Assembly: GCF_033568475.1 (NCBI RefSeq)
Contig: NC_133123.1
Span: 1,860,001 to 1,924,000, forward strand
Origin: Henckelia pumila
Taxonomy: Eukaryota > Streptophyta > Magnoliopsida > Lamiales > Gesneriaceae
Direction: 5' to 3'
Length of the DNA: 64,000 bases
Positions within the stretch are counted from its first letter, which is position 1, and the number at the start of each line of letters is the position of its first letter. Below are positions 27,454-52,969 of this stretch, in pieces. The notes under the pieces were generated by a model. It saw only the letters and a program-made list of their open reading frames with translations. It did not search any database and was not told where the DNA came from. The translations under genes and the position numbers were made by a program.

Positions 27454-30400
27454 TTTAGTTGGAGGAAAGGAGGAAGAGAATAAAATACTAGAGAAATGTA
27501 ATTGAGAAAGAAGAGTCACCAATATATGAACTAAACACCTCTATTTATAGGGTAGAGAGATTAGTGTAAAGAAAGGAAAATCCCATCAAATCAATCAACT
27601 ACAAATCATCTATATATAACACTCTCCCTTAGATGATTGATGAAGAGTCCAATGTTGCCTCGTTAAAACCTTGTCAGTAAAACCCAGTGGAAAAAATCTG
27701 AACAAAGGAAAAAGAGTACAACAATTGATACTCCCCCTGATTTCAATCACCGAATATCTTTTAATTGATGCATCCCTATCTTTTGCACCAATTTCTTGAA
27801 TGTTGATGTCGGTAATGCATTTGTGAATAAATCAGCTACATTTTCACTTGAACGGATTTGTTAGACATGAATATCACTTTTTTTGTTGAAGTTCGTGCGT
27901 GTAGAAAAACTTTGGTGAAATGTGTTTCGTTCGATCGCCTTTGATATACCCTCCCTTTAGTTGTGCAATTCAAGCGGCATTATCTTCAAAAATAGTCGTC
28001 GGGCTATCTTTTGTTGTTGGTAGTCCGCATGATTCTTGAATATGTTGAGTTATAGATCTCAACCATATACATTTTTGACTTGCTTCATGCATTGCAATGA
28101 TCTCAGAGTGATTATATGATGTCGCTGTCAAAGTTTTCTTTGTCAACTTCCATGAAATAGCGGTGTTCCCTCGTGTAAACACATAACCCGTTTAGGATTT
28201 GGCTTTATGTGGGTCTGAAAGATAGCCTGCATCTGCATATCCTATTAAAGAGAAATTTGATTTTTTCGAATAAAATAATCCCATGTCAGTTGTACCACGA
28301 AGGTAACGAAATATATGTTTTACACCATTCCAATGTCTTCGGGTTGGAGAAGAACTATATCTTGCTAGAAGGTTAACAAAAAAAGCTATATCTGGTCGGG
28401 TACAATTTGCAAGATATGATAATGCACCAATTGCACTTAGATATGGTACTTCCGGACCAATGATATTCTCTCCATCTTCAAGTGGACGAAAAAAATATTT
28501 CTTGGTGTCAAGTGATCTAACGACCATTGGTGATGCTAATGGATGTGCTTTATCCATGTAAAATCGTTTTAATATTTTTTCTACGTATGAGGATTGATGA
28601 ACAAATATTTCTTCTTGTAAATGTTAAATTTGCAAGCCAAGACAAAATTTTGTCTTTCCCAAATCCTTCATCTCAAATTCACTTTTTAAATAATTGGCAG
28701 TTTTGGTGAGCTCTTCGGGAGTTCCTATGAGATTTAGATCATCCACATATACTGCCACGATTGCAAAACCTTCATCCGTTTTTTTCGTAAAAACGCATGG
28801 ACAAATAGCATCGTTTGTGTAACCTTCTTGTAATAAATACTCACTAAGGCGATTGTACCACATGCGCCCGGATTGTTTTAATCCATATAATGACTTTTGC
28901 AGTTTTATTGAGAACATGGTCTTAGGGATTGTATCACTTGCTTCTGATGTCTTAAATCCTTAAGGGATTTTCATGTATATATCGTTATCAAGTGAACCAT
29001 ATAAATATGCAGTAACCACATTCATAAGTCGCATGTCCAATTTTTCTGATACATCCAAGCTAATCAAGAATCGAAAAGTTGTGGCATCCATTACAGGTGA
29101 GTACGTTTCCTCATAGTCAATTTCAGGTCTCTAAGAGAAACCTTGGGCTACAAGTCTGGCTTTATATCTTACAATTTCGCCATTTTCATTTTTTTTCCGT
29201 ACGAACACCCATTTGTATCCTACAAGGATTATATTTTTTAGGTGTTTGAACTACGGGCCCAAACACTCTACGTTTCTCTAAAGAATCTAATTCAGTTTGT
29301 ATAGCCGCCTTCCATCTTGGCCAATCATTTTTTTGTTGGCAATCTTTAACAGATTGTGGTTCGGGATCATCATTGTCTTGCATAATATCAAGGACTACGT
29401 TTAGAGTAAAAACATCATCGATGTTTGTATTACTTCGATCCCATATTTTATGAGGTATCAAATAATTTGTCGAAATTTCGATATTTTCATGTGATTGTGA
29501 TTCTTCATGAATCATGTTTTCCACATCTGTAAAATTTATTTCTCTTGTTATATCATGTAAAGTTGCTTCTTCTGGAGCTGTAACTGCTTCTTTATCTTGT
29601 ACCTTTCTTTTTCTAGGTACCGTATCCTTCGAACCAATTGGTCGACCACGCTTCTGGCGTATTTTAGATTCGTTTGCGGGTAAAGTATTACATGGTCCTA
29701 CAGGGACATCAATCTTCATCGGAGTATTCTCTACTTGTGTATATGATTTTGTCACATTTTTTGTATTAACAAAAGCATCAGGTAATTGATTTGCAATTCT
29801 TTGCAAATGAATAATTCTTTCAACTTCTTGCTCACATTGATTGTTTCGGGGATCATAATGAGATATAATGTTTTCTCATTTCAACAAATTTTTCGTTGTT
29901 CCTCAGGATACAACTTTGCTCCCCCTAGAGTTGGAAAATCAGTTTCATCAAAGTGGCAATTTGCAAATCTTGCAGTAAATAAATCACCCGTTAAAGGTTC
30001 CAAATATCTAATGATAGATGATGAATCATATCCCACGTAAATTCCAAGTCTACGTTGTGGACCCATTTTGGTCCGTTGTGTAGGTGGGATAGGGACTTGT
30101 ACCGCACAACCAAATACACGAAAATAAGAAACTTCAGGTTCTTGACCATATGCAAGTTGCAAAAGTGAGTATTGGTGGTACTTAGTTGGTCTCACACGAA
30201 TCAATGATGCAGCGTGTATTATAGCATGACCCCAAGCTGCAGATGGTAGTTTTGTTTTCATGAGTAGCGGCCTAGCAATCAATTGCAATCGTTTAATAAA
30301 TGATTCTGCAAGACCATTCTGTGTATGAACATGAGCAACTGAATGCTCAACTGAAATCCCGATCGACATACAAAATTCATCAAATGATTGTGATTTGAAT

Positions 30401-32617
30401 TCAGCAGTATTATCAAGACGAATTTCCTTGATCGAGTGATCAGGGAACTGAGCACGTAATTTAATTATTTGTCCAAGTAATCTAGCAAAAGCTATATTTT
30501 CGAGATGCTAACAAATTAACATGTGACCACCTAGTTGAGGCATCAATCAATACCATGAAGTATCGAAATGGTCCACATGGTGGGTGTATAGGCCCACAAA
30601 TATCCCCATGAATTCTTTCCAAGAAGGTTGGAATTTCAATATCAACATTTGTTGGGGAAGGTCTTATAATTAATTTTCCTTGTGAACAAGCCACACGTGA
30701 AAAATCATCATGTAAGAGAATCTTCTGATTCTTTAAGGGATGTCCACGAGAATTATTTATTATTCTTCGCATCATTGAACTCCCAGGGTGACCAAGTCGA
30801 TCGTGCCATAATACAAAATTTTTCTTGTCAACAAACTTCTTGTTTGTGACTGTATTTGCTTCAATTGATTTTATTATTGTGTAATACATCCCTGAGGGAA
30901 GTGCACGTAATCTTTCTTTTATCTGCTTCTGGCCAGATATAATAGATGTAATGCAAAGGTATTCAACATTGTTTGCATTTAATGTTTCAATATGATATCT
31001 ATTTCGACGGATATCTTTAAAGCTAAGCAAATTTCTACTGGATTTGCTTGCATAGAGTGCATTTTCAATATACAGGCTTGTCTCATTTGGTAAATGACTT
31101 TTGTCTTCCCATAACCTTCAATAATTTTTGATGCACCCGAGATTGTTATAACATTATTTTCATCTAATGTTAATTCCAAAAAATACATTTTGCTTTGAAG
31201 GATGGTGTGCGTTGTACCACTATCGGCTAGACATTCATCGTGATATTCCTTCATTAATCTAAAAATAAATTAGATAGGTTATAGCTCAAAGATAATTACA
31301 TCCAAGGCATATATAATTTACGCAACAAAATATTATAACTTATATCATTATTTTCATGAAGGATATGAACATCTAAAAAGATTAAATAATGAGATACCCA
31401 TAAAAATAAATAAGTTAAATTTATCTAAGGTATAGATCACGATTTGCGCAAATAAAATATAAATAAACATGGTATCATGTAGACTATGGAAATGTGTATA
31501 AACTTGTCATGTTGACATAGTTATTAATCAATCAAATATTTGTGTTTACATAAAGAAAATATTAGCAACTTCTTAAATCAATAAAATTAAGAATACAAAT
31601 AATAATCATACATGTCAAGATATAATGAGAAAACTTAAATAAAACAAGAATACATTTATAATTCGTATTGAATTAATATTCTTCAAGAATATAGGCAAAT
31701 CTTGAATCTTTAATCAAAATTCTGCAAGAATATTGATATATGTTAGATCTCGAATCAATATTCTTTGTTAATATTGATGAATATTAGATCTTATATCACT
31801 ATCGTTGACAAATCAAATATCAAAATTTCTCTAGAATTTTGGCAAATCTCAAAAATTTGATTCTTAATAAATATTGACAGAATTTATCTTGGATCAATAT
31901 CCATTCAAGAAATATTGATAGATCTATATAGATACAATTTTAAATCTTGAATCAATATTCTTCAAGAATAATAACAATCTCTAATTTAAATATTAAATCA
32001 TAAGTTTGACTATTTTGTTAAAATCAAATCAATATTTTTCCGGAATATTGATGATTAATATATCATGCTATCAAGTCAATATTCTTCAGAAATTTTTTCA
32101 GATCTTAAATCATCTATCAATATTGACAATTTTATATCTTGTATCAATATTTTTTCCGGAATATTGAAAGATTAAATCATTATATTGTATCCGTAGATCT
32201 ATCAAGTATCAATATAGAAACATGTTGTGTTACATCAAGAACATCAACATAAAATTAAATGATATGCTTCTCCAGGAGCATCAATAATTAACTAGGAGGA
32301 TGAACATAAAAAATAAAATTTATGCGATTTCGACGAACATCAATATAAGATCTAAATATTGTGCTTCTTCGAGAGCATTCATACAAATATAATAATATTT
32401 TTTTTCTCTACCTTGATGAGAGCACTCGTGCTGATAACGCATTATAAATTTAGTTGGAGGAAAGGAGGAAGAGAATGATATACTAGAAAAATGTAATAGA
32501 GAAAGAAGAGTCACCAATATATGAACTAAACACTTTTATTTATAGGATAGAGAGATTAGTGTAAAGAAAAAAAAATTCCAATCAAATCAATCAACTACAA
32601 ATCATCTATATATAACA
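27454..32617 (-). mobile_element. Ty1/Copia LTR retrotransposon fossil, minus strand
   Basis: Short LTRs of about 170 bp lie at 27454-27621 (3' LTR) and about 32446-32617 (5' LTR). They start TGTTATATATAGATG on the minus strand and differ by roughly 6 percent by eye, pointing to an insertion a few million years old at typical plant rates. ATAAA at 27449-27453 and 32618-32622 is the likely target-site duplication, though the same bases also occur next to the other LTR. A primer site resembling an internal initiator-tRNA match (TTATCAGCACGAG) follows the 5' LTR near 32437. A purine tract (AAGGGAGAG) precedes the 3' LTR. Protease (DSGTTHTI, near 31225), integrase, reverse transcriptase (YVDDLNLI near 28745) and RNase H are seen in order. 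It is broken, with roughly eight or more interruptions, and no recognisable gag is seen. Confidence 0.92.
31660..32235. repeat. Degenerate palindromic repeats inside the Copia leader
   Basis: Roughly nine copies, 50-70 bp apart, of a variable palindrome based on TCAATATTCTTCAAGAATAT, each with potential to fold as a short hairpin. They lie between the 5' LTR side and the protease region of the minus-strand Copia element. Confidence 0.65.
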
Positions 32618-32890: not shown

Positions 32891-34429
32891 ATGGCTACCT
32901 CGAAACTTCATGCTCTATGGAATCACCCTGCTGGCCCTAAAACAAGTAATTTTACCACCCCTCCACTCATTTCATCCATTTCCAATCTATGCGATGCAAA
33001 GATTCTAACTTTATCTCGTTTACATTAAGTTTGATAAGCTTACTTTGATGGGATTGCTTTATGGGATTTAGATGTTATCTTGCCTGTTGATATTGGAACA
33101 CGGGAAGGGTGTGTTTACTGATTTGTTGCATTAATTTTACGGAATTAGATGTGAAAATTATTGGACTTCTAGCTGATCTTTTACTCTTATTGATGTAGCC
33201 TTTCTTTTGCTTTACGGCTTTAGTACGTATTCTCGTGTCCTTGCTTTCTGAAAAAACTTGGGATGCCAAAACTGTTGAATTTTTGAGTATTTTAATTGAT
33301 TTTTCTTTTTCTTTTTTCCCCCAATTTCCATGAAAGAGCTTCTTAGATTAATTCTCAGAATTATGAGTGCAGCTTATTTTTGGAATGATGAGTGCAGAAT
33401 TTATCTGAGTCTTTATAGAATTATTCTGTTTTAGATTATCCTAATGAACTCGTACTTGATGAGATTGTTAATCATGAAATGAAGCATGTAAATGTTGTAG
33501 CTAAGCAGGTAAACTGTATTTCTTGTTTAAGTTTTTGTTTTGTCTCAAATCCTCAACCAATCGTGTCTTATAAACAGATGCTGAATGAACATCATCTGCT
33601 GGTTGAGTTCTCTTTATGTTTCTTTAACTGTCAGGTTCATTATAATTTTGGAACCTGCTTTGACCAATATTGTGATCTATGTGTGTAATATTCTAGTTGT
33701 TGCGTTGTAGTTCATTTCTGGGCACCAACGTTCAAGTGGGGCATTAGCATAGCCAATTTTGCCGACTTTAGCAAACCGCCAGAGAAAGTTTCCTATCCCC
33801 AGCAAGTTGGTGAGTGGTGTTTGATGATCTTTTGTGCTCTCAAACTTTTGAACCTGTGAACATGAGATAATTGTGCATCTATTGTTGCTTAATTTCCATA
33901 TACGGTTTAATTACTTCTATTTTGTCAATCTTATGATCAAATTTATGCAGCTGTGACAGCAACTGGACTAGTATGGTCGCGTTACAGCACAGTTATTACT
34001 CCTGTAAGTTCAATTAAATCTGGGCATTAATTTTTTTTACATTATGTTTTTGTGAGACTGGATAATAATCAAGCCGCTGATTGCATCTGCTGCTGATGGA
34101 TTCATGTTCCATTATTTGCATCGTCTTTGTTTTGCAATTGCATCACATTCTATTTTCCTGTATGAGATTGTTGGTTTCTTAAATGTGATATCACTGATTA
34201 TGGAGTGCAGAAGAACTGGAACCTTTTAAGTGTAAACGTTGTAATGGCTGGTACAGGCATTTACCAGCTTTCCCGAAAAATTCGGTAGGTGGATTTCATA
34301 GTATGTTTTTGTATATCATCACTGTGGCCTTTGTGATAATGCTACATTATGCTTTGCATTCATGAGACCCCTCATCATTACAGGCACGATTACTTCAATG
34401 AGGAGCAAGCTATTGTAGCTAAAGAATGA
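32891..34429 (+). CDS. MPC: Mitochondrial pyruvate carrier subunit (MPC2/MPC3/MPC4 type)
   Basis: A subunit of the heteromeric carrier that imports pyruvate across the inner mitochondrial membrane to feed the pyruvate dehydrogenase complex. Five exons join in phase: 32891-32945, 33711-33809, 33951-34003, 34211-34284 and 34384-34429, giving 108 residues, the usual plant length. The protein starts MATSKLHALWNHPAGPKT. It continues with the family signature IHFWAPTFKWGISIANFADF, then YPQQVAVTATGLVWSRYST, ITPKNWNLLSVNVVMAGTG and IYQLSRKIRHDYF. Three hydrophobic helices are expected, as in MPC proteins. The long intron 1 (about 765 bp) is typical. The start is the first ATG after a CAGAG-rich leader, and it looks intact. 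It lies about 270 bp from the end of the Copia insertion, so its promoter space is short. Confidence 0.95.
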
Positions 34430-35266
34430 TCCGAAAATCACGCACTTCTCGTTCTGCTATAAACTCAGTTTGCCTGATTGCTTCTTGCGTGCTCGCACCT
34501 TATGGCTGTACTATTTTTAGTTCTCTCGCTCTTTCTTCCTTCCTTATTTTCACTTATTTTTTCGAGTGTTTTCCCAGTTCCCGTTGATCTTCGATGATGC
34601 ATATTTGGACATATAGTCTGATTTACTGAAAAGTTTGATGTTTATGATCAGTGTAAGAGTGTGATATGGATCGATCTCTCATCGGGTGCAATCACATGAA
34701 TTCCCATAACTTGATATAATTAGATGCTCGAAATTTACCAGTCTTTTATGTAGGTATTCTAAAAGTTCTTTTTTTTTTTTTTGAGGGATAATATAAAGAA
34801 CAACTTGACTGTTTGATGTTAGTTGTTTTTCTATAATAATTTGGTATATTAATGTACATACATTAGTTTAACTTCTTATTTTAAACAATAATACGAGTTT
34901 GAAAATCTTATCATATAACATTTGAAAAAAAAATCAAATTAGAATTTACTCAATTTGCTCCTGAATAAATTAACAATTGATTTCAAATACTAATAATGTT
35001 ATTTTTATTGTAAGCTGAATTTATTTATTTCTTTTTGTAGACAAATTTTTTCCGTCTTTATATTTACGTATATATATTATATAACCTTAACTCTTAAGTC
35101 AATTTGTTTATTGATGATGAAATTACAATGGATTGATATATCAAAAGTAAAAAATATAACTATTATTTTTTAATATTTTAGTAGTATTTTGTGCATTTTG
35201 AAAAAAAAAATAATCATAATTTGATAGTTTGGATTTTTGACAAACAAATTTATGATATACGGGAAA
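34430..35266. other. MPC 3' UTR and AT-rich intergenic region
   Basis: The first 250 bp are likely the carrier 3' UTR. The rest is AT-rich without a recognised gene. No terminal exon of the neighbouring PUR3-like gene was found here. Confidence 0.5.
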
Positions 35267-36036
35267 AGGTGTTAATCGGACAGTTCGATTTTAATTTGTC
35301 AAATTTCGGTTCAATTTTTGGTTTTCGATTTATGAAAAATGTAATCTGAAGTCAAACCTTTCTGCTTCGATTCGGTTCGATTTTTGTATTATAATGCACC
35401 GATTTATACGGTTCGATTTGGTCGATTTGATAATTAATAATACTTAACACAATAAAGAAAACATAAATTTCATTCAACATGTAATTTAAATATCCAACAC
35501 ACAACTTAAAATTATAATCATATAGTGAAAAAACAAAAAATAACGAACAATACAAAAACAAAATTCAACCACAGTCTTATAATATTTTCAAAAAAAAAAC
35601 GAAAAAAAAAACAAATTTGATACGGTTATTCTGATTTTGATACAATTATTAAAATTAATAATATAAATACATTGTAAAATATAATATGTTTTTTTTACTT
35701 GATTTCTTAGTAAAAACTTTAAAAATAAAGTTTAAATGACTTACATAAACAATAATCAACTATAAATCACATAAACAACAACAATGAATTAAATAAACAA
35801 CAAACAACTAAAAATTATTCAAAATGGAACTCATTCACTAAATATCATCTCATAACATATGTAATATAAATAAAATTATTAATTTAATTCAATTTCGATT
35901 TTGACATATATAATCCAAAATCAAATAACTTCAGTTTTAATATTTATATCTAAATTAAAAATACGATTTTCGGTTCGGTATTTGATTTTTTCGATTTGGA
36001 TTTCCGGTTATATCCGAAATATGAACACCCCCTATA
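35267..36036. mobile_element. Candidate non-autonomous hAT-like element, full copy
   Basis: Ends resemble each other: AAGGTGTTAATCGG on the left, and TAGGGGGTGTTCATATTTCGG on the complement at the right. Subterminal regions are rich in CGGTTCGGTTTT-like words, while the interior is AT-rich and non-coding. Its right three quarters recur inverted at 39284-39817 as part of the palindrome, where the element is cut off. Confidence 0.55.
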
Positions 36037-37542
36037 ATAACCTATATAAATCTGATTCAATGTGAGCAAAAAAATTCTAGAATTTCGACAAACAATTTAT
36101 GATATACCAATATAAATATGATTCAATCTGAGAAAAATATCTCATCCTCCATTTAACGAAAAACTAAAAGTAATAACACTAGTATTTGAAATTGGAAAAA
36201 ACGTATTAATAATTTTAAACGATAACAAATGTCACAAACAAACATATCAAATTTGAATATTAGCTATTATATTTTGGATGTCATCAATTAATTTTGAATG
36301 TCATCACAAATTAATTTAATTTCAACCATCAAACATCCCTTAATTACTATGTATATGATTAAATTATTAAAAAATTGAAGAATAATATTTTCATAAGTCT
36401 ATACAAAATTAAAACACAAAACGACCAGAATATATATGTATATACACGTGTACTAACATATGTACACGTATATTCATTAAAAGTCAAAACAAATATCTAA
36501 TAAAATTATGTAATATGTTGAGCAACCAAACAATGAGAGTCTCTTCCCCCTATCTTAGGAAAATGTTTACGACAGCATCAATAAATCAACTCAATTGTCA
36601 CGGTTACAAGCACAAGCACTCTAAGATAGATAAATAACGCTTTCCAAATCGATCCATTTTAACCACTCACCCTCGTTTAATTATTGCTAATCACAGGTAC
36701 AGTGGCGTTCGATAAGATATCACAACTAATTTCTGGTCTGACGAAAGAAAAAACTCATACCCCACCAAAGTCACACGTGTCTTCGGTGGGGTGATAACTG
36801 AACATGCTACAAAGCATGTACGTCAAGTGATTGGATGGATAAAGTATCGGGCAGAAACACTCACCTCCAAGTTGGATAGAAAGACGACATTCTGGATTCG
36901 TAGCGCAGCCTTTGTCCGAAGATAGTTGTAGCAGTGACGGGGCAATACTGGACCTGGGCATACACCCGGCGATGGCTTGTAAGTACGTGTTCTCCCCACA
37001 GTCTCTTGGATTAAAAATGCCATTAAAATTGTCAGTAGTATTAGAGCCATTAGGAACAGAATTAAAGGAATAAAGACTCGACTCTATTTTCAAATGATGA
37101 AATGGTGGCTGATGCCTAATAACAATCAACAGTTAAGTCAACAATATATATGTATTAAGACAAAACACGGTTTTTTTTTTTCCACATTGTTTACCTTCAC
37201 TTAGGCAACGTTTATTTTTGAAATGAAAAAAAAATGGACACAAAAAGAGTCTCCAAGATTTTTCCAAAATTGTTTGCACAAGGGTATAAAAATTAAAACT
37301 CAAGTATACTATAATACCTAGTATTTTGTGCGATACCAACGGATGACACATACAAAGCTATCCATATATTTTCGAAAAAAAATGCAGACAGTCAAAAGCA
37401 AAACGGTCCCATATTTATGTTTTGAAGTTACTCTACGTCTATTATTTCTTTAGAAACATAAACCTTCAAATAAGAATTTTACTATTTATCATCTCCACAT
37501 AAGTGAAAAACAAAAAGTACTTGTGCTTAAGACTCCCAAAAT
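35576..37542 (-). repeat. Left arm of a 4.2-kb inverted duplication
   Basis: Read as the reverse complement, this arm aligns over its whole length with 37738-39817 at roughly 85-90 percent identity by eye. Anchors include CACGTGTGACTT[TC]GGTGGGG, GTGACAATTGAGTTGAT and the doubled ACACGTGTA words. It contains X8 gene copy A and part of the hAT-like element. About 195 bp (37543-37737) separate the arms; most of that spacer still matches X8 copy C, so the left copy extends to about 37722. Confidence 0.9.
36755..37050 (-). pseudogene. X8-domain (CBM43) secreted protein, copy A, frame-broken
   Basis: A start MALILLTILMAFLIQE at 37050 gives a signal peptide. The X8 domain lies in the next frame, with GCATNPECRLSIQLGGECF and ending TCDFGGV. 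It retains the Cys pattern C-x-C-x-GGxC-x-CDF typical of X8. Signal peptide and domain are put out of phase by one small indel near the G-rich joint (about 37000). X8 proteins such as PDCBs bind callose at plasmodesmata or the cell surface; that function is known for the family and only inferred here. The first conserved Trp (WCV) is replaced by GC. This copy sits on the left arm of the palindrome, facing copy B tail to tail across the axis in inverted order. Confidence 0.65.
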
Positions 37543-38228
37543 TATTGCTTTACCAAAAAAAAAAAAAAATTCGGATGTCAAAAGTGTATTGTGGGGACGT
37601 GGAGCACTTTCAAAAGGACGAGATGTAAAAATTACATGCAAATGTACATAGCAAGTTGAATTCAAAAAAATGATTACCTTATTAGGAAGATAGGAATGAT
37701 CACATACGACCTTCTCATAATTGATTAGTTTATTTAATTTTGAGAGTCTTAAACGCAAGCATGTTATGTTTTTCACTTATGTGGAAATGAAAAATAGGTA
37801 AAATTCTTATTTGAAGGTTTATGTTTTTTAAGGAACAAGACGTACTAGAGTAACTTCAAAATATGAATATGTTACCCGTTCTGCTTTTGGCTGTCTGCAT
37901 TTTTTTTCAAAAATATATGGACAACTTTGAATGTGTCATCTGCTGCCATCATACAAAACAGTAGGTATTAAAATATACTTGAGTTTAATTTTGTGCAAAC
38001 AATTTTGGAAAAAAGCTTGGAGACTCCCTTTGTGTCCATTTTCTTTTCATTTCAGAAAATAACGTGTGCCTATGTGAAGATAAACAAATGTGGGAAAAAA
38101 AGAAAACTGTGTCTTGTCTTAATACATATATATTATTGGCAATTAACTGTTGATTGTTATTAGGCATCAGCTACCATTTCACCATTTGAAAATAGAGTCG
38201 AGTTTTTATTCCTTTGGTTCTGTTCCTA

Positions 38229-38594
38229 ATGGCTCTGATACCGCTGACAATTTTAATGACATTTTTAATCCAAGAGGGCGGTGGGGTGAACACGTACTTA
38301 CAAGCCACCGCTTGGTGTGTGTCCAGGTCAAATATTGTCCCCTCACTGCTACAACTAACTTTGGACAAAGACTGCATTATGAAGCCAAAACACTGCCTTA
38401 CTATCCAACTTGGAGGTGAGTTTTTTCTGCCCGATACTTTATCCGATCACTTGACGTACATGCTTTGTAGCATGTTCAGTTATCACCCCACCGAAGACAC
38501 GTGTGACTTCGGTGGGGTAGGAGTTTTTTCTTTCGTCAAACGAGATATCAGTTGTGATATCTTACCGAACACCACTATGTGTGATAAGCAATAA
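38229..38594 (+). CDS. X8-domain (CBM43) secreted small protein, copy B, open frame
   Basis: An uninterrupted 121-residue frame. Signal peptide MALIPLTILMTFLIQE is followed by a short GGG linker. The X8 domain has AWCVSRSN, DKDC, KHCLTIQLGGE, the H-x-TYM block (DHLTYMLCSMFSYH) and TCDFGGVGVFSF, and then a short tail ending CDKQ. The residue expected to be Cys after GGE is Phe here, so one of the usual disulfides is lost; an extra Cys (LCSM) occurs nearby. X8-only proteins with a signal peptide include the callose-binding PDCB group, but no GPI signal is evident in this tail. A TATTAG splice-acceptor-like site (about 38158) precedes the start and an upstream non-coding exon is possible. It may be a live gene or a recent relic. 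Confidence 0.55.
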   Translation: MALIPLTILMTFLIQEGGGVNTYLQATAWCVSRSNIVPSLLQLTLDKDCIMKPKHCLTIQLGGEFFLPDTLSDHLTYMLCSMFSYHPTEDTCDFGGVGVFSFVKRDISCDILPNTTMCDKQ

Positions 38595-39283
38595 TTAAAC
38601 AAGGGTGAGTGGCCAGAATGGATCAATTTGGAAAGCGCTATTTATTTGTTTTAAAGTGTTTGTGCTTGTAACCGTGACAATTGAGTTGATCTATTGATGC
38701 TGCCGCAAACATTTTCCGGAGATAGGAGGGGAAGAGACTCTCATTGTTTGGTTTCTCAATATATTACATACTTTTATGAGATATTTGTTCTGAATGTTAA
38801 TGAATACACGTGTACATATGTTAGTACACGTGTGTATATATATTTTCTCGTCATTTTGTGTTTTAATTTTGTATAGGCTTATGAAAATGTTATCCCTTAA
38901 TTTTTTAATAATTTAATCATATGCGTACCGTGTCATGTAATTAAGGAATGCTTGATGGTGAAAAATTAAATAAATTAATCAATATAACGCCCTAGATAAT
39001 CATATATTTTGAAGTAAGAATTAATGATGACATCCAAAATATAATAGCTAACATCCAAATTTGACATGTTTGTTTTATTGTAACATTTATTATTTGTTAT
39101 TGTGTAAAATTATAAATACATTTTTTTTCAAATTCAAATATTAGAGCTATTACTTTTATTTTTTTCGTTACACAGAGGATGGATATTTTTGCTCACATTG
39201 AATCATATTTATATATGTATATCATAAATTGTTTGTCAAAATCCTAGGATTTTTTTGCTCAAATCCACAAATTTATATAGGTT

Positions 39284-39817
39284 ATTATAGGGGTGTTCAT
39301 ATTTCGGATTTAACCGGAAATTAAACCGGAAAAATCAAACAAGGAACCAAACCAAAAACCGTATTTTTTAGTTCGGATATAAATATTAAAACCGAAGTTT
39401 ATTTGATTCGATTTTGGATTATATATGTCAAAACTGAATCGATCGAAAAACAAAAATTGAATAAAATTAAAAAATTTATTTATATTATATATGTTATGAG
39501 ATGATATTTAGTGAATGAATTTCATTTTGAATAATCTTTAGTTGATTGTTGTTAATTTAATTCATTGTTGTTGTTTATTTAATTTATAGTTGATTAGTTG
39601 ATTATTGTTTATGTAATTTTAGTTGATTATTGTTTAAGTAAGTCAATTTAACTTTATTTTTAAAGTTTTTACTAAGAAATCATGTAAAAAAAGAACATAC
39701 TATATTTTACAACGTATTTATATTATTAATTTTAATGATTGTATCAAAATCGGAATAACCGTATCAAATTTGTTTTGTTTTGTTTTTTTGTTTTTTTGTT
39801 TTTGAAAATATTATAAG
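39284..39817. mobile_element. hAT-like element, truncated inverted copy
   Basis: Starts TAGGGGTGTTCATATTTCGG and repeats in inverted order the right part of the element at 35267-36036, including GTTTTTACTAAGAAATCA and TTATGAGATGATATTTAGTG. It stops at the palindrome breakpoint. Confidence 0.55.
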
Positions 39818-40098
39818 AAAACATACCACCACCAATTGATCTGTCCTCATGTTTGATCTGCATTGATATGCTTTCTCGCACCAAGCTCCAAACTCCACGG
39901 TCAATCGATCTGCTCTTAAAACTCATCTGTCCATCAACTTCGATAAACACTATTGCTTAGGTATAAAGTCAGAGTGGAAATCTAAATTTAATGATCATAA
40001 GAAAATTGAAAAACTGCCAACCAAGCACAATCAAATATTTTATTGGACCCCAAGATTACAGCAATAACAATACTCGAAAGGACTTCGAAGTTTCATAC
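39818..40098. other. Junction between palindrome and PUR3-like gene
   Basis: About 280 bp. On the minus strand there is a 68-codon open frame (VFIEVDGQMSFKSRS...) bounded by splice-like sites, but it does not resemble the missing part of GAR transformylase. Origin unknown. Confidence 0.4.
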
Positions 40099-41310
40099 CT
40101 CGCCCCAGAAGCAATGACTGCTTTATGCACCTTTATACCATAGTATCCTTTGCCACCAAATGCTGGAAGAAGTGATGGATGAATGTTCAATATCGAATTT
40201 GGAAAAGCACGGATCAGCTCAGTGGGAATAAGTTTGAGATAACCAGCCAAAAGAACAAAATCTACCTTGTAGATCTGTTCATAGGTAATATGAAACTAAA
40301 CTCGGTAAGATAAATCACCAGAAAAAGGAATGTAAATGCTTGACGATATTTTGCTAGAAGAGGGGATGAAAATCAGTTTCTGCTTTCCCTCGAGATGGTA
40401 ATAATACATAATAGTATGCCAAAAAAATAAAAATACAACAAAAAACACATGGAGACAACATAGTGAAAGAGCTCAAATAACACTTTCAGAAAATGACTGA
40501 TGTCAATTAGCCAAACCACTAACCAGATAGATTAACTCAAACCTGAGCAACATAATGCCAAGAATTCTGTGCCTACACTTTAATTTATTTATCTTTAAGA
40601 CAAGTAAATTCTCGGAAACCCTTGAGGTGGCAACTTATCATGTAGGAGGCAAAACTTATAGTTCTAGAAAAATTTAATTACAATAATCAAGTTGGAAAAT
40701 TATTCGCTGGAATGGGCAATTATTCTCCTCTTGCACATCTTTCATTTTAGGAACAATATAAACAGGGATACCCTTCTGACGGGCAAAGTCCGCCCCTCCA
40801 CATTCTGTATGAAATATTGAAATGTGACCACAGAAAATACAGAGTTTGGTTTAATAATCATGAAAACAATTATGACATGAAAGTAATCGATCTCAAAATT
40901 TGGACTAATAGTGATAAAGTAGAGATCTTTGGCCGTTTAAGAATCAACTACAATGCTACGCCGCATCTACGCGAATAATTGCTGAAATTTACATGAAAAA
41001 TACCAGGTTTATTGGTGACCAAAACAGCGATGTCACCTTGAACAGACCCACTAAGACTTGCCTCATAGATGGACCTGAAATTGGAGCCTCCGCCAGATAC
41101 AAAAACCGCCAAATTTTTCTTTCGAATTTCTGAGACTTGGTTATCTTTTCCTACAACGAGGCTCCCTTCACTCTCAAGTCTCACGACGTGATTTATGAAC
41201 TGCACATTCCTTTTCGAAAGTGCGCGAGGATAAAAGGAACGATGAATTTTGAAAGAAACCCAGCTTGGGCAACGGATTTTGGATGAAATTGGAGTAGAAA
41301 TTTGTGCCAC
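40099..41310 (-). CDS. PUR3: Phosphoribosylglycinamide formyltransferase (GAR transformylase), 3' end missing
   Basis: The enzyme transfers a formyl group from 10-formyl-THF to GAR, the third step of purine synthesis, in plastids. Exon 1 (41310-41004) encodes a transit-peptide-like leader and the substrate loop AVFVSGGGSNFRSIYEA. Exon 2 starts at 40804 with ECGGADFARQKGIPVYIVPK (G split across the intron). Exon 3 (40274-40099) carries DFVLLAGYLKLIPTEL and the catalytic NIHPSLLPAFGGKGYYGIKVHKA, ending at SGA(R). The end of exon 2 and the linker to exon 3 could not be matched to the family. The following exon, with the catalytic Asp block (HFVDExYDTG in homologues) and the C-terminus, is absent; the palindrome begins about 280 bp further on. 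Either the end was lost at the palindrome breakpoint or it lies beyond this window after rearrangement. As shown, the gene could not make an active enzyme. Confidence 0.82.
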
Positions 41311-41679
41311 TGAATAGATATTTCAGAGGATCGAATCCATGGAATAGCTGAATGGAAAGGGTTCCGGGAATGAGCTGTCTGGGTTTCCATAGAACTGCAA
41401 TAACTTAAAAATGGAGAAAAATAATAATAATATAATAAGTTACATTTGGAGTCAAGGATTTCCACCAAATTTGGTGGGATTTAAATTTATGAATATCTTT
41501 TCGGCGTTTGGAAAAGTTTTGATGAAATTTGATGAAATTTGATTTAACTGAATGAAATTTTTATAAAATTGATTGAATTGTGGAGATTCATATGATAAGA
41601 TTTGTGTTTATAAAATAATATATTTTTTTTTCAAAAAATTATATTATATTTTTTAGATGAAATTTATATTATATTAAGA
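41311..41679. other. PUR3-like promoter side and AT-rich spacer
   Basis: 5' region of the minus-strand PUR3-like gene followed by AT-rich DNA. Nothing else is seen. Confidence 0.4.
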
Positions 41680-42040
41680 TATCGTTTGGTTTGAGGTATA
41701 ATATAAATAATATATAAATAAGTAATATAATGTAATAAATAAGAAATAAGAAATTATAGTTCAAATAATATTGTATTTGATTGATATATTATGGTTTATT
41801 TGATTTGATTGATTAAATTTTATATAAAAATGTTAAATGACTATTTTGTCCTTTTAACAATAAATAAAATAAAAATTATATGGGTAATATAGTAATTTGA
41901 ATTCAATGATTTGATTGATGTGAGATAAATAATTAATGATTTGATTGATGTAAAATAAATAGTTAATATATTGATAAATAATATGATGATAAGAACATAA
42001 GATGAGATGAGTTATACATATATTAATAATATGATTAACA
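41680..42040 (+). mobile_element. MITE-like non-autonomous DNA element, family copy 3
   Basis: Starts TATCGTTTGGTTTGAGG and shares the ordered blocks of copies 1 and 2 (ATTTTGTCCTTTTAAC, AATTCAATGATTTGATTGAT, ATAAATAATTAATGATTTG, GAGTTATACATATATTAA). The 3' border is approximate. Confidence 0.6.
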
Positions 42041-43570: not shown

Positions 43571-46000
43571 AAAACAAAAAAGTGCAGTTAAATGTAAAAT
43601 ATGACTACATATATTCGAGACAATCGGAAATGATGCAAATGACCAACTATGCCAAGTTCTTGAAGGAGATTTTCTCCAACAATAAAAAATTAAAGGAGCG
43701 TGTGTTGATCTGCTTAACTGAATATTGCTCTGCACTGGTACAGAACAAAATCCCACCCAAACAAAAGATACAAGGAGTTTTTCTATTCCTTGCATTATTA
43801 GTGATATTCATTTTCAATAAGCTTTATGTGAATTAGGTGTTAGCATAAATCTGATGTCATACTCTATTTTTAGGAAACTAGGTTTGGGGGAGCCAAAACC
43901 CACAAGGATGTCGCTGCAGTTGGCTGACAGGTCTATAAAATATCCAAGAAGGATAATAGAGGATATACTGGTGAAAGTAGACAAATTCATCTTTCCAGTG
44001 GATTTTGTAGTACTTGATATGGAAGAAGATTTGGATATGCCATTTAGTTTGGGAAGATCTTTCCTGACGGCATGAAAAGCACTCATAGATGTCCAAAAGG
44101 GAGAATTACTTCTGATAATGGGAGATGAAAAAATTGCTTTTTATGTTTTTAATGCGCTCAAATGTTCATAGGTTGATGAAGAATGTTTTCAGATAGATGT
44201 GGTTGACTCACATGTTTATAATTATGTGCAGGATACACTCTAGGAACCTTTAGAAGCTGCACCTGCATCTTCTTTCCATGATGATGACATTGGTGAAGGA
44301 AAATTCGGAAATGACTGCTTACTTGAATGATAACCAACCTTGGCGGAAAGGTGGCAGGCTTAGACTTGAAGATCTAGGTGACAGGAAGGATTTAGTCCTC
44401 CAGAAACCAAGTCTTGAGGAGCCACCAACTATTGTATTGAAACCCCTAGCTCCTCATTTGAGATATGTATTTTTGGGTGATGATAACAACTTACCCGTCA
44501 AATTCCCTCTTATTTGACAGATACCATGGAATCCAAACTACTAGATGTTCTAAAAAATAACAAGAGTGTGTTTTCTTGGAAGGTAGCAGATATCAAAAGA
44601 ATCAATCCTTCTATCTGCATGAATAATATCTTAATGGAAGAGAACATCAATCCTTTGGTCCAACCTTAGAGAAGATTGAATCTCAAGATGCAAGAGGTGG
44701 TGAAGGCCTAAATGATAAAACTATTGGACGCAGGTATTATTTATCCAATATCTGATAGTGCATGGGTAAGTCATGTTCAGTGTGCACCAAAAAAAAAAAG
44801 GGGTATAGCTGTAATTAAAAATGAGTAGAATGAATTAGTACCTTTTAGGAAAGTTACAGGTTGGCGTGTGTGCATAGATTATAGGAAACTAAATGACGCA
44901 ATCAATAAGGACCACTTCCCTCTCCCCTTCATTGACCAAATGCTAGAAAAACTTACGTGGTATGAATTATATTGTTTATTAGATGGGTATTCAGGGTATA
45001 ATCAGATTACTATTGAACTTGAAGATCAGGATAAAACAACTTTTACTTTTCCATATGATACATTTGCTTATAGATGTATGCCTGTTTTTTTAATAATGCT
45101 CATGCAACTTTTCAGAGATGCATGACTGCGATATTTTATGACATGGTTGAAAATTTTCTGGAAATATTTATGGATGACTTTTCAATTTTTGGTCAGTCTT
45201 TTGATGCATGTCTAATAACCTGATCACTGTTTTGGTGAGATGCTAGGAGACAAATTTGGTCCTAAATTGGGAAAAATGTCATTTCATGGTAAAAGAAGGG
45301 ATTGTGTTTGGACACCGAATTTTTGAGTAGAGAATCGAGGTGGAAAGGGCCAAGGTTCAAGTCATTCAGAATTTGCCTCTACCGAAGATGATTAAAGGAG
45401 TCAGAAGTTTTTTAGGCCATGCCATTTTTTATCGGTGGTTCATCAAAGATTTTTCAAAAATTACAAAACATCTTTCTTCTTTTTTAATGAAAGATGCACC
45501 AATTAATTTTGATTCAAATTTTTTGCAGACGTTCAAAACTCTGAGGAAAAGATTGGTAACTGCACCAGTGCTGACAACACCTAATTGGGATCTTCCCTTT
45601 GAGGTCATCTGTGATGCAAGCGACACGTTAGTTGGTGCCTTACTTGGACAAATAATAGAATTATGCTACCAATGAAAATGAATTGATTTTTGTAATTTTT
45701 TCTCTTGACAAATTTCATTCTTACCTTGTACTTTCAAAATTCACTGTGTACTCTGATCATTCTACAATAAGACATTTATTGGCTAAGAATGATGCAAAAC
45801 CAAAATTGATTAGATGGATCTCGCTCTTACAAAAATTTGATCTATAGATAAAGGATAAGAACGAAGTAGAAAATGTTAAACGCAACATGCGTGAAAATTT
45901 CGACGATGTAGCAGAAAAGCCCTTAAACACGAGCTCAACTAATGACCCGAATAAAAATGTATCAAGACAGCAGCAATCCTGCAACTTGTAATGTAGAATT
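43570..46000 (+). mobile_element. Ty3/Gypsy retrotransposon fossil, Athila-like
   Basis: Pol remnants lie in order on the + strand. A pre-protease block (NYAKFLKEIFSN) is near 43640. Protease-type sequence with SYSIFRKLGLGEPKPTRMSL and FPVDFVVLDMEED runs at 43854-44075. Reverse transcriptase with CIDYRKLNDAINKDHFPLPF and LDGYSGYNQI runs at about 44868-45125. An RNase H start (FEVICDASDTLVGALLGQ) is near 45600. This wording is typical of the Athila/Tat branch. No LTR pair was found. The element is badly broken (about ten interruptions or more) and old. Confidence 0.85.
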
Positions 46001-46982: not shown

Positions 46983-48031
46983 CAGACAATTGCGAGAAGG
47001 TTGTATGTGATCCTTCCAATCTTCCTAATCATTTTTCTAAATTCGACTTGCTATGTACCCTTGCATGTAACTTTTACATCTTGTCCTTTCGAAAGTGCCC
47101 CACAATACACTTTTGACATCCGAAAATTCATTTTTTGTAAAGCAGTCATTTTAGGAGTCTTAAACGCAAGCATTTTCTGTTTTCACTTATGCCGAAATGA
47201 TAAATGGGTAAATTTCTTATTTGAAGGTTTATGTTTCTTAAGAAACAATAAACGTACTAGAGTAACTTCAAAACATAAATATGTCCCCCGTTCTGCTTCT
47301 GGAAGTCTGTATTTTTTTCCAAGGGTATATGGACATCATTGTATGTTCCATCCGCTTCCATCGCACAAAACACTAGGTATTATAGTATACTTGAGTTTTA
47401 ATTTTTCTACCCTTATGCAAACAATTTTGGAAAAAAATCTCGGAGACTCCCTTTGTGTCCATTTTATTTCCATTTTAGAAGATAATATTTGTCTATGTAA
47501 AGGCAAACAAATATGGAAAAAAGAAAATCGTGTCTTGTCTTAATACATATATATTATTGTCACTAACTGTTGATTGTTATTAGGCATCAGCCACCATTTC
47601 ACCATTTGAAAATATGGTTGAGTCTTTATTCCTTTAGTTCTGTTTCTAATGGCTCTGATACCGCTAACAATTTTAATGACATTTTTAATCCAAGGGGGCG
47701 GGGTGGAGAGAACACGTATTTACAAGCCACCGCTTGGTGTGTGCGCAAGTCCAATATTGCCCCGTCACTGCTACAACTAACTTTGGACAAAGGCTGCACT
47801 ATGAAGCCAGAATGCTGCCTTACTATCCAACTTGGAGATGAGTTTTTTCTGCTCGATACTTTATCCGATCACTTGAAGTACATGTTTTGTAGCATGTTCA
47901 GTTATCACCCCATTGAAGATACGTGTGACTTCAGTGGGGTAGGAGTTTTTTCTTTCGTCAGACAGATATCAGTTGTGATATCTTACAGAACGCCACTGTA
48001 CTTGTGATTAGCAATAATTAAACGAGGGTGA
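46983..48031 (+). pseudogene. X8-domain (CBM43) secreted protein, copy C, frame-broken
   Basis: About 1,050 bp match both palindrome arms, from AATTGCGAGAAGG to ACGAGGGTGAG, without the flanking hAT-like element. The start MALIPLTILMTFLIQ (47649) gives a signal peptide, while the X8 block (AWCVRKSN, DKGC, ECCLTIQLG, TCDFSGVGVFSF, ending by 48007) lies in another frame because of an indel in the G-rich linker near 47695-47710. The residue after the GGE-like turn is Phe, as in copy B, so B and C are closer to each other than to A at that site. This is a third paralogue or the source copy of the palindrome. Confidence 0.65.
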
Positions 48032-49700
48032 GCTCTCAAAGCATGTGAATTAAATGCAAGATCATTTAATTCACCTCTTATCTTCCCAACTACCACCAAT
48101 CACAAATCTAGCTCACCTAATGCCTTCATCATTAAACTCTTCCTAACAGTTAACCAGTTCCAAGTAAGCGGCAAGACATTAAATCACTCTCAAAAACCAA
48201 ATAATCAATAAAACGAAGAATAAATGCAACACATAGTAACCAAAGGTATAACAACTGGAGTGGCAAAATTAGTACTCGATTATAAGCAGGATATGAATAA
48301 AAATAAATTGTAGCTTCAATTAAGAAAACATAACACCACCAATCTTAACAAAAAAGAAAAAAAATAAGAATGACCGATTGGAGATAAATGTAAAAATAAA
48401 AAGAAACTACTTCATATTTAATGACAACACCACAATTTCTACAAACTCTTGATAATAGTAGTATGTTAAACAAAATTTCTCACCAAAATTTGCGATAATG
48501 CCATGACATTAAAAAAAAGTATTTTACAAGTTAACAAGAGAACATAAAAGGAAAATAGAAAATACAGTAGCTTATAAGATCGTAGGTTGGCTAAAACACA
48601 TTAGTATGCGAGATTGATCCATGGATGACTAAAATCTCAAAAAGAATATTGTAGCAGAAGAAAAGAATAGTAAAATAAAAAACAATGAAAATCTTAAACT
48701 TCACAACAAAAAGATTAGAGAACAGGGAAAACTAACTTTGAAATTTCTAAAAATCTTAAAATCGGCAAAATAACATTAAAGAATCCTTTGTTTTTGGCTG
48801 ATGAATTTCTAAAAATCTTAAAATCGGCAAAATAGCATTAAAGAATCCTTTGTTTTTGGCCAGTTGCATCAGCTCTGATGTAGAGTATAGCAAAAATACG
48901 CCAACCTCTTTGTGAACAAACTATTTTTGGGTTGTCGAACGTGGATTAGATAATGACACCAAAAAGTTTATTTTCTCTTAACAATTTCAAGTTGATGGAT
49001 TCGTAGCTCTTGAGTTCTCGTACATTTGAGAATTTGAAGCGGTGGAAAATACTAAATGTTGAAGTGTGCTTGTGATCGAAATACTAAAATCAGATCAAAT
49101 ATCAGGATTCTCTCCCCATGGGCCGATCCCAAATTTAGATCGGCCCCTACCCGACCGTTTTCCCTTGTCCCGGGTCATCGGCCCCGGAATTCCCTTAACG
49201 GGTCAGACCCACGCACTTATAGAGGCATTTAAATATATAAGCTCGGTCTTGTTTTTTTTTTTTTAAGTCAAAGGGACTCGCGTGTTTTTTTTTAAGTCAA
49301 AGGGACTCATTTAATGTACCGTATTAGTTGGCCCTTAAATTGGGTCTTAATTACTTAAGTGGTGTCAGATCAGATTAGTTAATGGTTATGTAATCTTTTA
49401 TCTCGACCAATATACTCGTGGGGCCTGTTTTTTTTTGTTTTTTTGTGCGTATTCCCCTGCTGTGCAAACACAGCTCCTTTTCTACCGGGACCACCCTTTC
49501 TCCGACCAAAAAATTCTCAGAAACTTCCTTCCAACTGGACCACTCTGCTTTAAAGTCCCACACCTGTACCAAACAAACTTTTTCCCTTGTTTTATCCCTC
49601 GTATTTTCCAAGAGGGAACAAAAAGTAAGCAATATCATTAATGCTCCAAATCTGCCCCCTTTATTTTATTTCTGTTATGTTAAATGACAATTATCTTTTA
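48032..49700. other. Intergenic region with a 62-bp tandem duplication and a GC hairpin
   Basis: A 62-bp unit (GAATTTCTAAAAATCTTAAA core) is duplicated in tandem at about 48739-48863. A perfect 9-bp stem GGGCCGATC / GATCGGCCC with a 9-base loop lies at 49120-49146 in a locally GC-rich patch. A 22-bp motif (TTTAAGTCAAAGGGACTC) is repeated at 49262-49279 and about 49293-49310. No gene is recognised. Confidence 0.55.
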
Positions 49701-50300: not shown

Positions 50301-50307
50301 ATAGGTT

Positions 50308-52969
50308 ATGACAATCAGTAATGTTGTCCTTCAATGTAATGGAAAGTGGATTCGGGATGAGCACGATGTTTTCAAATGGTCTTCACATGAAAGTTGTAAA
50401 TGGGATTTAATCACAGTGGACGATGAGACATGCAATTTCGAATCTTTTAAGAATGAGGTTGTTAACATTCTGGATTTGGCATGTGATATTAACAGAACCA
50501 AATTCAGCTATTTGCCGATTGTTCCTAATTGTCATCCTCATCCCTTTTATATTAAGGATGATAGAACTCTGCATGTGTACCTTTACTTTGGTGCCCCAGA
50601 CAAGAGACCCGTGCTGAATGTTATGGTGGAAGAAGAGGAAGTGAACGTTGGACTGGACAACGAAGTGCATGCATTTGAAAGCACTCAGCACCTCAGTAAT
50701 GATAGCATGACATTTAATAACATCGCTAATTTTGAACAATCATTTGATGTTTGTGGCAATTGTAAAGTCGCTGATTATGGTAGATCATGCAATGAAATGC
50801 GGGGTCTTGATGGTGAAGACGAGGATCGTGACAGATCGATGGATGTAAATGTTGGGGGGTTGAATCGTAATGACAAATACTTCGATGGAGATTTTGTCAT
50901 TCCTAATGAGAATGATAAGGAAACAACTGAGAATGTCAACGTGTCTTGTCCTGTGGGGGGGTTGAATCATAATGATGAATACTTTGGTGGAAATTTTGTC
51001 ATTCCTAACGAGAATGATAAGGAAACAACTGAGAATGTCAACGTATCTTGTCCTGTGGGGGGGGGGGGGTTGAATCATAATGACGAATACTTTGATGGAT
51101 TTTTTGTCATTCCTAACGAGAATGATAAGGAAACAACTGAGAATTTCAACGTGTCTTGTCCATTCGAACAACTTGAAGATCCTTTAATTTTAGGAGAACC
51201 TTCATTACACCAGCAGCAATTAAGACGGTCTGAGTCCGAGCCGGAAGGGTATCTAAATGGACATCGGATCCGAAAAAAAATTCCGTTGGTAGATAGAGCT
51301 GAGTCATGTGGCAATGGTACATACTCATTCCGTGATAGATCCAACATTTCTATTGGGCAGGTATTTTCCAATAAGGCAGAATTTCAGATTGAATTGTCCC
51401 CACTTGCAATAAAGTCATCTTTTGAGTTCAAAATAGTGAAATCTAACAAGTCCGTGTATGATGTTCGATGTGCTGCTGATAGTTGTACTTGGAGGATTCG
51501 AGGTGCAAAGAAAGATCCACACTCAACATGTTTTAACGTTCGAACATATTGTAACATTCACACCTGTGACTTGATGCGCATGAGTATAAAAAATCGACAT
51601 GCTACTTTTGGGTTAGTGTCAGCTGTGTTGCTAGAAAATTTCGGTGGTCAAAGGACTACACCTATGCCGAAATCAATAATCACAATGATGCGTAATCAGG
51701 GAGTTCAGGTATCATACTTCAAGGCACGTAGAGGTAAAGAACTGGCCCTTAACACCATGATGGGCAATTCTGTTGAGAATTTTTAGGAAGTTGCCATCAT
51801 TTTTAAAAATGGTTGAGAAAGTAAATGTTGGTAGTTTCACGGATTTAGAAGTGGATGAAGAAAAAAGATTTAAATACATGTTCTTGGCATATGCTGCATG
51901 TATTACGGGATACAAATTCATGAGAAAAGTTGTCTGCATTGATGGTACATTCTTGAAAGGAAATTATGACGGTGTGCTACTTGTAGCAACCGCACAGGAC
52001 GGAAATCACCACCAATTTCCCATTGCATGGGGTGTTGTCGACAAGGAAAGCTCTGAGTCATGGTCTTGGTTTCTAAGCAGATTGAAAATCATAGTAGAGA
52101 ACGACGACTAATTGGTGATAATATCAGATAGACACCAGGGCATCATAAATGCAGTTGCATCTTTATACAATCGTGCATATCATGTGTTTTGTATGTGGCA
52201 CATGTCACAAAACATCAAAGTCAAGAGCAACAAAAAAAATGGAGCTGCCGAGCTATTCATTCGAGTGGCAAAAGCATACAAGGAAAGTGATTTTTATTCC
52301 TTGTATACAGAATTGAGAGAGAGATTTCCAGAGGTTGCTAAATATTTGGAGGATAACACTTCTCCCGAAAGGTGGTCTAGAGCGAAACAAACCGGGAACC
52401 GTTACTCCATCATGACCACGAATGGAGTGGAATCAATAAATGGTAGGTTGCGTGAGGAGAGGGAGCTTCCAATAATTGCATTATTGGAAGCACTGCAAAG
52501 AATCACATCAACCTGGAGAAGTAAATATCGTCAAGAAGCGGTTGCATCAACTACACATCTCACACCAGCGATAGAGTCAATCATTCGTGAGAATTTCATC
52601 GTTTCTAGAAAATATGAAGTCATTGAAGCAACTGAGGGGAAGTATTGCGTGTACGGTAGCACAAGCAACGAGTTAGTTGATTTACAGAGTAAATCTTGCA
52701 CATGCCGTAAATTTGACATTGACAAGATTCCATGTTCACATGCCATTGCTGCTGCCTACAACGAAAATATTTCTGTTTATGAACTTTGTACAGATGATTA
52801 CACCACACGTTATTGGTTAAAAGCATATACGGACCCTGTCTATCCAGTACCAGGTGAATGGACAGTGCAGGAGGAAATATTGGTGCTGCCGCCTCTAGTC
52901 ATTCCCCGTTGTGGACGGAAAAAATTAAAAAGAATACCTTCAGTCGGGGAGTATGCCAGAAGACGTTGA
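50308..52969 (+). mobile_element. Mutator-like element (MULE) transposase gene with two lesions
   Basis: One transposase of about 886 codons is covered by three consecutive open stretches. The N-terminal part (50308-51786) has a plant MULE DNA-binding domain near FSNKAEFQIELSPLAIK...CTWRIRGAKK. The DDE domain includes CIDGTFLKGNYDG (Asp codon 51941) and LVIISDRHQGI (Asp codon 52127), then FCMWHMSQNIK. A SWIM zinc finger CTCRKFDIDKIPCSHAIAA lies at about 52696-52752. Two breaks are visible: an extra T at about 51784 in GAATTTTTAGG shifts the frame by one (span 2,662 = 3x887+1), and an in-frame TAA lies at 52109-52111 where homologues have an acidic residue. Otherwise it is well preserved, so inactivation seems recent. 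An upstream AG at 50302 suggests a possible 5' intron. Confidence 0.9.
50855..51165 (+). repeat. Three in-frame tandem repeats inside the MULE transposase
   Basis: Units of 102 and 108 bp encode GGLN(R/H)ND(K/E)YF(D/G)G followed by FVIPNENDKETTEN and NVSCP three times. A run of about 13 G at the third joint (51057-51069) encodes extra Gly and is the cause of the length difference. Confidence 0.9.

What the first reader, a model, noticed from the sequence alone, without database searches (positions are those of the whole stretch)
35576..39817. A 4.2-kb palindrome of an X8-domain gene could fold into a long hairpin RNA
Two arms of about 2 kb, 85-90 percent alike by eye, face each other across about 195 bp, each with an X8 secreted-protein gene. 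Established model: inverted duplications of protein genes can found new MIRNA or siRNA loci that silence the parent family (proposed for Arabidopsis young MIRNAs). A third, non-inverted copy at 47-48 kb is a ready target. The hairpin origin is seen in the sequence; silencing is inference.
Basis: partly seen in the sequence, partly recalled or inferred. Interest (0 to 1): 0.78.

Follow-up and report, generated by a model that had tools for sequence, protein, structure and literature searches.

The report
Decayed inverted pair of X8 pseudogenes
Two worn, mirror-image copies of a small plant X8-domain gene lie back to back and could fold into a long RNA hairpin if transcribed, but the sequence holds no sign that the pair is kept for gene silencing; it looks like an ordinary ageing duplication.

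Summary
The palindrome is real. Arms 35575-37544 (-) and 37735-39818 (+) are 87.9% identical over 1948 aligned sites around a 190-bp spacer; a shorter third copy lies at 46987-48032 (+). Twelve percent divergence with 29 gap openings argues against a self-chimera assembly artefact.

The silencing interpretation is only partly supported. A transcript would fold into a long hairpin (-2361 and -2457 kcal/mol by strand; three minus-strand controls -849 to -937). But the X8 copies evolve like pseudogenes: codon positions vary alike (17/95, 16/96, 13/97). The arms are no closer to each other (K 0.128) than to copy C (0.146, 0.122), and show no excess C-to-T decay (51/650 against 24/325).

The copies are head to head, so a hairpin needs transcription across the axis, most simply from outside. 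Both neighbours point inward: an MPC-like gene ending at 34429 and a GART gene fragment, apparently lacking its 3' exons, beside arm B, an arrangement resembling soybean GmIRCHS. Small RNAs and transcripts could not be tested. Most likely a neutral relic (0.75); siRNA production remains possible (0.22).

The parts
35575..37544 (-). Arm A: inverted copy of the X8 unit, sense direction leftwards
   Evidence: BLASTN and realignment to arm B, 87.9% over 1948 sites
37545..37734 (.). Spacer, 190 bp; 37545-37723 is upstream sequence of the unit shared with copy C but missing from B; arm-B match to C starts at 37737
37735..39818 (+). Arm B: copy of the X8 unit, sense direction rightwards
36755..37129 (-). 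X8 remnant of arm A: 124-aa ORF from a TTG, no Pfam hit at E<=1, Trp before the first Cys replaced by Gly, two compensating indels relative to B and C; the putative signal-peptide ATG is in another frame
38229..38594 (+). X8 ORF of arm B from the first ATG, 121 aa, putative signal peptide in frame; one Cys position occupied by Phe against 2JON
46987..48032 (+). Copy C: third, partial, non-inverted copy; X8 frame open (47570-48007, TTG start) but the putative signal-peptide ATG at 47649 is in another frame
40095..41118 (-). GART (phosphoribosylglycinamide formyltransferase) gene fragment, three exon-like pieces (41118-40936, 40805-40737, 40265-40095), apparently lacking the 3' exons, pointing into arm B
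   Evidence: tblastn with recalled probes; Pfam Formyl_trans_N 60.3 bits over profile 80-130 of 181; PDB GART chains
32891..34429 (+). MPC-like (mitochondrial pyruvate carrier) gene, five exon-like pieces joined by eye, pointing towards arm A; ends 1.1 kb before it
   Evidence: PF03650, 138 bits

Best explanation
A plant intergenic inverted duplication of an X8-domain gene segment (exon, its upstream sequence and 3' flank) that has been decaying largely without constraint. Shown: three copies with near-equal mutual divergence, two forming a head-to-head palindrome with a 190-bp spacer. Shown: codon positions vary alike, as in pseudogenes, and the arms are not homogenised. Inferred: the copies arose close together in time by local duplication, one in inverted orientation; the locus is at most sporadically transcribed and has no selected function. 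If read-through from a neighbour crosses it, the RNA would fold into a long imperfect hairpin that Dicer-like enzymes could cut, but no sign of a maintained role is seen.
For: Star-like distances A-B 0.128, A-C 0.146, B-C 0.122; unique sites A 55, B 39, C 52. Variable sites by codon position 17/95, 16/96, 13/97 (positions 1+2 against 3, Fisher p 0.50) and X8 part 46/288 against upstream 104/556 (p 0.34). The putative signal-peptide ATG is out of frame with X8 in A and C. Cys to Phe in B against 2JON, the same residue in C. C/G-to-T/A changes 75 of 975 sites against 32 of 1635 for the reverse, alike in the three copies.
Against: The X8 frame is open in all three copies, B has a 121-aa ORF from ATG with putative signal peptide and X8 above Pfam's cut-off, so a working B gene is not excluded. 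The codon-position test rests on 46 variable sites and three sequences, and has little power. Polarity was set by majority of three copies without an outgroup. Absence of sequence signs does not exclude recent or lineage-specific siRNA production.
Confidence: 0.75

Rival explanations
1. An endogenous hairpin-RNA (inverted-repeat siRNA) locus. Transcription from the truncated GART fragment (minus strand) or read-through from the MPC-like gene (plus strand) crosses both arms; the hairpin is diced to 21-24 nt siRNAs that act on X8 relatives.
For: Either strand folds almost wholly arm to arm: 1817 of 1870 pairs on the minus strand, 1779 of 1844 on the plus; 35 and 21 uninterrupted helices of 21 bp or more. 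18 perfect identical runs of 21 nt or more, longest 64. Both neighbours point inward. Precedents: GmIRCHS has the promoter-bearing 5' part of a DnaJ gene beside an inverted repeat of pseudoCHS3 (PMC13051633, passages); the Cvi VIM4-VIM2 pair is head to head and makes siRNAs (PMC13213937, passages and section 6). A hairpin with one substitution in four still silenced GUS in 33 of 33 lines, 10 strongly (PMC9263138, section 6 part 1).
Against: No expression or small-RNA data. Arms no closer than either is to copy C, no excess C-to-T change in the arms (51/650 against 24/325, p 0.90; by context p 0.87, 1, 1) and no significant G:U bias (p 0.10). The Cvi precedent is 99.86% identical; the Col-0 pair, 92.22% and 2.8 kb apart, is not the reported siRNA source. 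A GART promoter was not tested.
Confidence: 0.22
2. A young MIRNA gene born by inverted duplication, targeting X8 genes.
For: Pseudogene-related miRNA genes overlap inverted duplications more than chance in A. thaliana (P 0.0301; PMC3237417, abstract and section 6).
Against: Arms of about 2 kb are far longer than plant miRNA foldbacks (size rule recalled); no Rfam family in the window at gathering score; no reads to show one precise miRNA/miRNA* pair.
Confidence: 0.02
3. Arm B (and perhaps C) is a working secreted X8 protein gene, and the palindrome is merely two head-to-head members of a small gene cluster.
For: 121-aa ORF from ATG with a putative signal peptide, PF07983 28.6 bits (cut-off 25.7), PDB 2JON match E 0.0019.
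Against: B-specific changes by codon position 6, 5, 3 give no excess at third positions; one Cys position is Phe.
Confidence: 0.1
4. A foldback or Mutator-type transposon with long terminal inverted repeats that carries X8 sequence.
For: Arm structure; a MULE transposase lies at 50.3-53.0 kb.
Against: In the ranges searched around the two outer ends (5-12 bp), no direct repeat longer than 6 bp; the outer half of the unit is absent from copy C.
Confidence: 0.04

Closest known systems
Soybean GmIRCHS (I allele), inverted repeat of pseudoCHS3
   Same: Inverted repeat of a pseudogene with a short spacer next to the 5' part of an unrelated truncated gene pointing into it (PMC13051633, passages)
   Different: There tail to tail, 78-bp spacer, CHS dsRNA detected; here head to head, arms 12% diverged, the GART fragment looks decayed, expression unknown
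Arabidopsis Cvi VIM4-VIM2 inverted repeat
   Same: Head-to-head pair with a short non-palindromic centre (50 bp there, 190 bp here) and a related copy elsewhere (PMC13213937, passages and section 6)
   Different: 99.86% identical working genes with siRNAs shown; here 87.9% and pseudogene-like
Inverted-duplication model of MIRNA birth
   Same: Inverted duplication of a protein-gene segment (PMC3237417, abstract and section 6)
   Different: Stem about 2 kb, no miRNA evidence, no sign of selection on the pairing
X8 domain (PF07983, CBM43) proteins such as the 2JON olive-type beta-1,3-glucanase domain
   Same: X8 profile match in B and C, 2JON match for B
   Different: Below or lost in A; Cys to Phe; no purifying selection detected

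Membership tests
Endogenous hairpin-RNA / IR-siRNA locus | Closely spaced long inverted arms able to form dsRNA | tested here: met
   Arms 1970 and 2084 bp, spacer 190 bp; -2360.5 and -2457.3 kcal/mol; minus-strand controls -936.7, -849.3, -924.9
Endogenous hairpin-RNA / IR-siRNA locus | Transcript crossing the axis | not testable with these tools
   No RNA-seq held; only inward orientation of both neighbours seen
Endogenous hairpin-RNA / IR-siRNA locus | Dense 21-24 nt small RNAs on both arms | not testable with these tools
   No small-RNA data
Endogenous hairpin-RNA / IR-siRNA locus | Arms kept alike or showing methylation-linked decay (supporting, not strictly defining) | tested here: not met
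   K 0.128 between arms against 0.146 and 0.122 to copy C; C-to-T 51/650 against 24/325
Plant MIRNA | Short foldback, about 300 nt or less (rule recalled) | tested here: not met
   Whole palindrome 4244 nt; substructures were not searched for short foldbacks
Plant MIRNA | Precise miRNA/miRNA* reads | not testable with these tools
   No small-RNA data; no Rfam match in the window at gathering score
X8-domain protein gene | PF07983 above curated cut-off | tested here: met
   B 28.6 and C 28.2 bits against 25.7; arm A none (2 of 3 copies)
X8-domain protein gene | Conserved Cys pattern and selection on the protein | tested here: not met
   Cys to Phe in B against 2JON; codon positions 17/95, 16/96, 13/97, few sites
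Foldback or MULE-type transposon | Target-site duplication at the outer ends | tested here: inconclusive
   No direct repeat over 6 bp in the ranges searched near 35575 and 39818; an old one could be lost

The most novel reading that the evidence does not exclude
The truncated GART fragment supplies a promoter whose minus-strand transcripts, lacking the gene's own 3' end, run through both arms and make a long imperfect hairpin RNA; its siRNAs damp an X8 (callose-binding-type) family. It would be a natural, head-to-head, mismatch-rich analogue of GmIRCHS built independently on another gene family.
Probability: 0.1. Interest if true: 0.55.

Novelty: new member of a known kind. Interest (0 to 1): 0.2.

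Why it matters
If silent, it is an ordinary inverted pseudogene duplication and a reminder that a foldable palindrome is not a silencing locus. If transcribed, three copies of near-equal divergence (two paired, one not) would give a built-in control for asking how long a diverging hairpin stays a Dicer substrate, and whether head-to-head inverted pseudogenes next to truncated genes repeatedly become silencing loci.

Tried and rejected
Assembly artefact: not favoured, since arms differ at 235 of 1948 aligned sites with 29 gap openings. Transposon ends: no direct repeat over 6 bp near the outer ends. Compensatory or wobble-biased change: 65 against 86, p 0.10, towards the minus-strand hairpin but not significant. 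Small-RNA-linked C-to-T decay in the arms: none over copy C. Rfam at gathering score: 0 matches. tRNA/tmRNA: 0. Viral-contig scan with the B ORF: 4 stretches matched a pattern, none confirmed by tblastn; metagenome and genome collections were not scanned. The whole genome is not held, so the parent gene, other copies and the species stay unknown. Literature on 'X8 domain' with 'inverted repeat' and 'siRNA': 0 papers in the held library. An outgroup for rooting the three copies was not available.

Full report
OBSERVATION. BLASTN of 34001-42000 against the whole 64-kb window pairs 35575-37544 with 39818-37735 (2110 columns, 82.65%, 2121 bits), and both arms with a third stretch, 46987-48032 (84.1% to A over 1072 columns, 87.1% to B over 890). 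Realigned, the arms agree at 87.9% of 1948 sites with 29 gap openings. Of 29 inverted pairs of 60 nt or more, 25 were listed, and the 11 with arms under 5 kb apart all belong to this palindrome. Differences at 12% of sites argue against an artefactual self-chimera, which would be nearly identical (inference).

ANATOMY. The X8 copies point away from the axis: A leftwards, B rightwards, C rightwards. The A-C match runs through the spacer to 37723, while the B-C match starts at 37737/47148. So most of the spacer is the unit's own upstream sequence, kept in A and C and missing from B. The outer 1.1-1.2 kb is shared by A and B only, with the same divergence (K 0.130, 1085 sites) as the core (0.128, 861 sites), as expected if the arms were duplicated as one piece. 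No direct repeat over 6 bp was found in the ranges searched around the outer ends.

HISTORY. In the core shared by three copies, K2P is 0.128 (A-B), 0.146 (A-C) and 0.122 (B-C); unique sites are A 55, B 39, C 52, with 5 columns all different. This is close to a star. The palindromic arms are therefore not more alike than each is to the unpaired copy: no homogenisation or selection for pairing is visible. With recalled plant substitution rates near 7e-9 per site per year, K 0.13 would mean roughly 9 million years; the species and its rate are unknown.

CODING STATE. In the X8 part and its tail (38305-38594 in B, gap columns dropped) variable sites are 17 of 95, 16 of 96 and 13 of 97 at codon positions 1, 2 and 3; positions 1+2 against 3, p 0.50; this part against all upstream aligned sites (46/288 against 104/556), p 0.34. 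There is no third-position excess, as expected of pseudogenes, but the sites are few. The first ATG of a hydrophobic, putative signal peptide is in frame with X8 only in B (121 aa); in A and C it runs into another frame (75 and 43 aa). B has Phe where 2JON has a Cys, and C has the same residue; A keeps that Cys but has Gly for the Trp before the first Cys and two compensating indels. Against this, the X8 frame itself is open in all three copies, and B and C pass Pfam's X8 cut-off. A working B gene is unlikely but not excluded.

HAIRPIN CAPACITY. Folded whole, the plus strand gives -2360.5 kcal/mol with 1779 of 1844 pairs between the arms, the minus strand -2457.3 with 1817 of 1870; 21 and 35 uninterrupted helices reach 21 bp. 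Three minus-strand controls in which arm B was replaced by other window sequence, shuffled in 10-mers or turned round gave -936.7, -849.3 and -924.9. Arm-arm runs of perfect identity of 21 nt or more number 18, the longest 64. Copy C shares 129 of 1026 21-mers exactly with the palindrome; no other window 21-mer does. Mismatch alone is no bar: a GUS hairpin with one substitution in four still gave silencing in 33 of 33 tobacco lines, 10 of them strong (PMC9263138, section 6 part 1).

TRANSCRIPTION. Head-to-head copies fire away from the axis, so a hairpin needs transcription that starts outside or upstream on the far side. Both neighbours point inward. On the left an MPC-like gene (plus strand, 32891-34429; peptide joined by eye, PF03650 138 bits) ends 1.1 kb before arm A. 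On the right a GART fragment (minus strand, exon-like pieces 41118-40095) ends 276 bp before arm B; a recalled probe found no convincing match to its last 78 residues anywhere in the window (next best E 1.1), and Pfam covers profile 80-130 of 181 in its last exon. Soybean GmIRCHS likewise joins the promoter-bearing 5' part of a DnaJ gene to an inverted repeat of pseudoCHS3 (PMC13051633, passages), and Cvi VIM4-VIM2 shows that a head-to-head pair can make siRNAs (PMC13213937, passages and section 6). Those arms are 99.86% identical. Whether the GART fragment has a live promoter was not tested.

TESTS FOR USE. If the arms made siRNAs over long times, one could expect methylation-linked C-to-T decay. 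With majority polarity, C-to-T (both strands) is 28, 23 and 24 of 325 sites in A, B and C; arms together 51 of 650 against 24 of 325 in C, p 0.90; CHH p 0.87, CG p 1, CHG p 1. All three copies lose C/G faster than they gain it (75 of 975 against 32 of 1635), which suits methylated, decaying DNA in general. Transitions that keep a G:U pair number 65 for the plus and 86 for the minus hairpin, p 0.10: a lean towards the minus strand, not significant. Rfam gave no match in the window.

VERDICT. A genuine but ordinary inverted duplication of X8 pseudogene-like copies. The hairpin is physically possible and its setting has good precedents, so small-RNA data would be worth a look; nothing in the sequence shows a maintained silencing function. 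The four non-exclusive rivals are scored separately, so the figures do not sum to one.

Noticed in passing
40095-41118 (-): GART gene fragment that appears to lack its 3' exons; exon-2 reading frame also looks disturbed by eye.
   Followed up: partly
907-5248 (+) and 28024-31117 (-): Two copia-type retrotransposon remnants in opposite orientation; RVT_2 196.9 bits in the first, inverted matches of 70-78% between them.
   Followed up: no
43854-45675 (+): Gypsy-like pol fragments between arm B and copy C, by eye from the ORF list; not scanned.
   Followed up: no
50305-52969 (+): MULE transposase pieces (DBD_Tnp_Mut, Transposase_mut, MULE, SWIM) with a 102-bp tandem repeat of 3 copies inside the first ORF at 50850-51161.
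   Followed up: no
61878-63903: Satellite-like tandem array with a 198-bp unit and a 307-bp higher-order period.
   Followed up: no
41677-41997, 17229-17557, 13768-14071: Dispersed repeat of about 300 bp in three places, 79-82% alike.
   Followed up: no
57089-57139 and 58713-58759; 57987-58036 and 59034-59083: Two pairs of similar short arrays, one of them TTTAGGG telomere-like, suggesting a local duplication.
   Followed up: no
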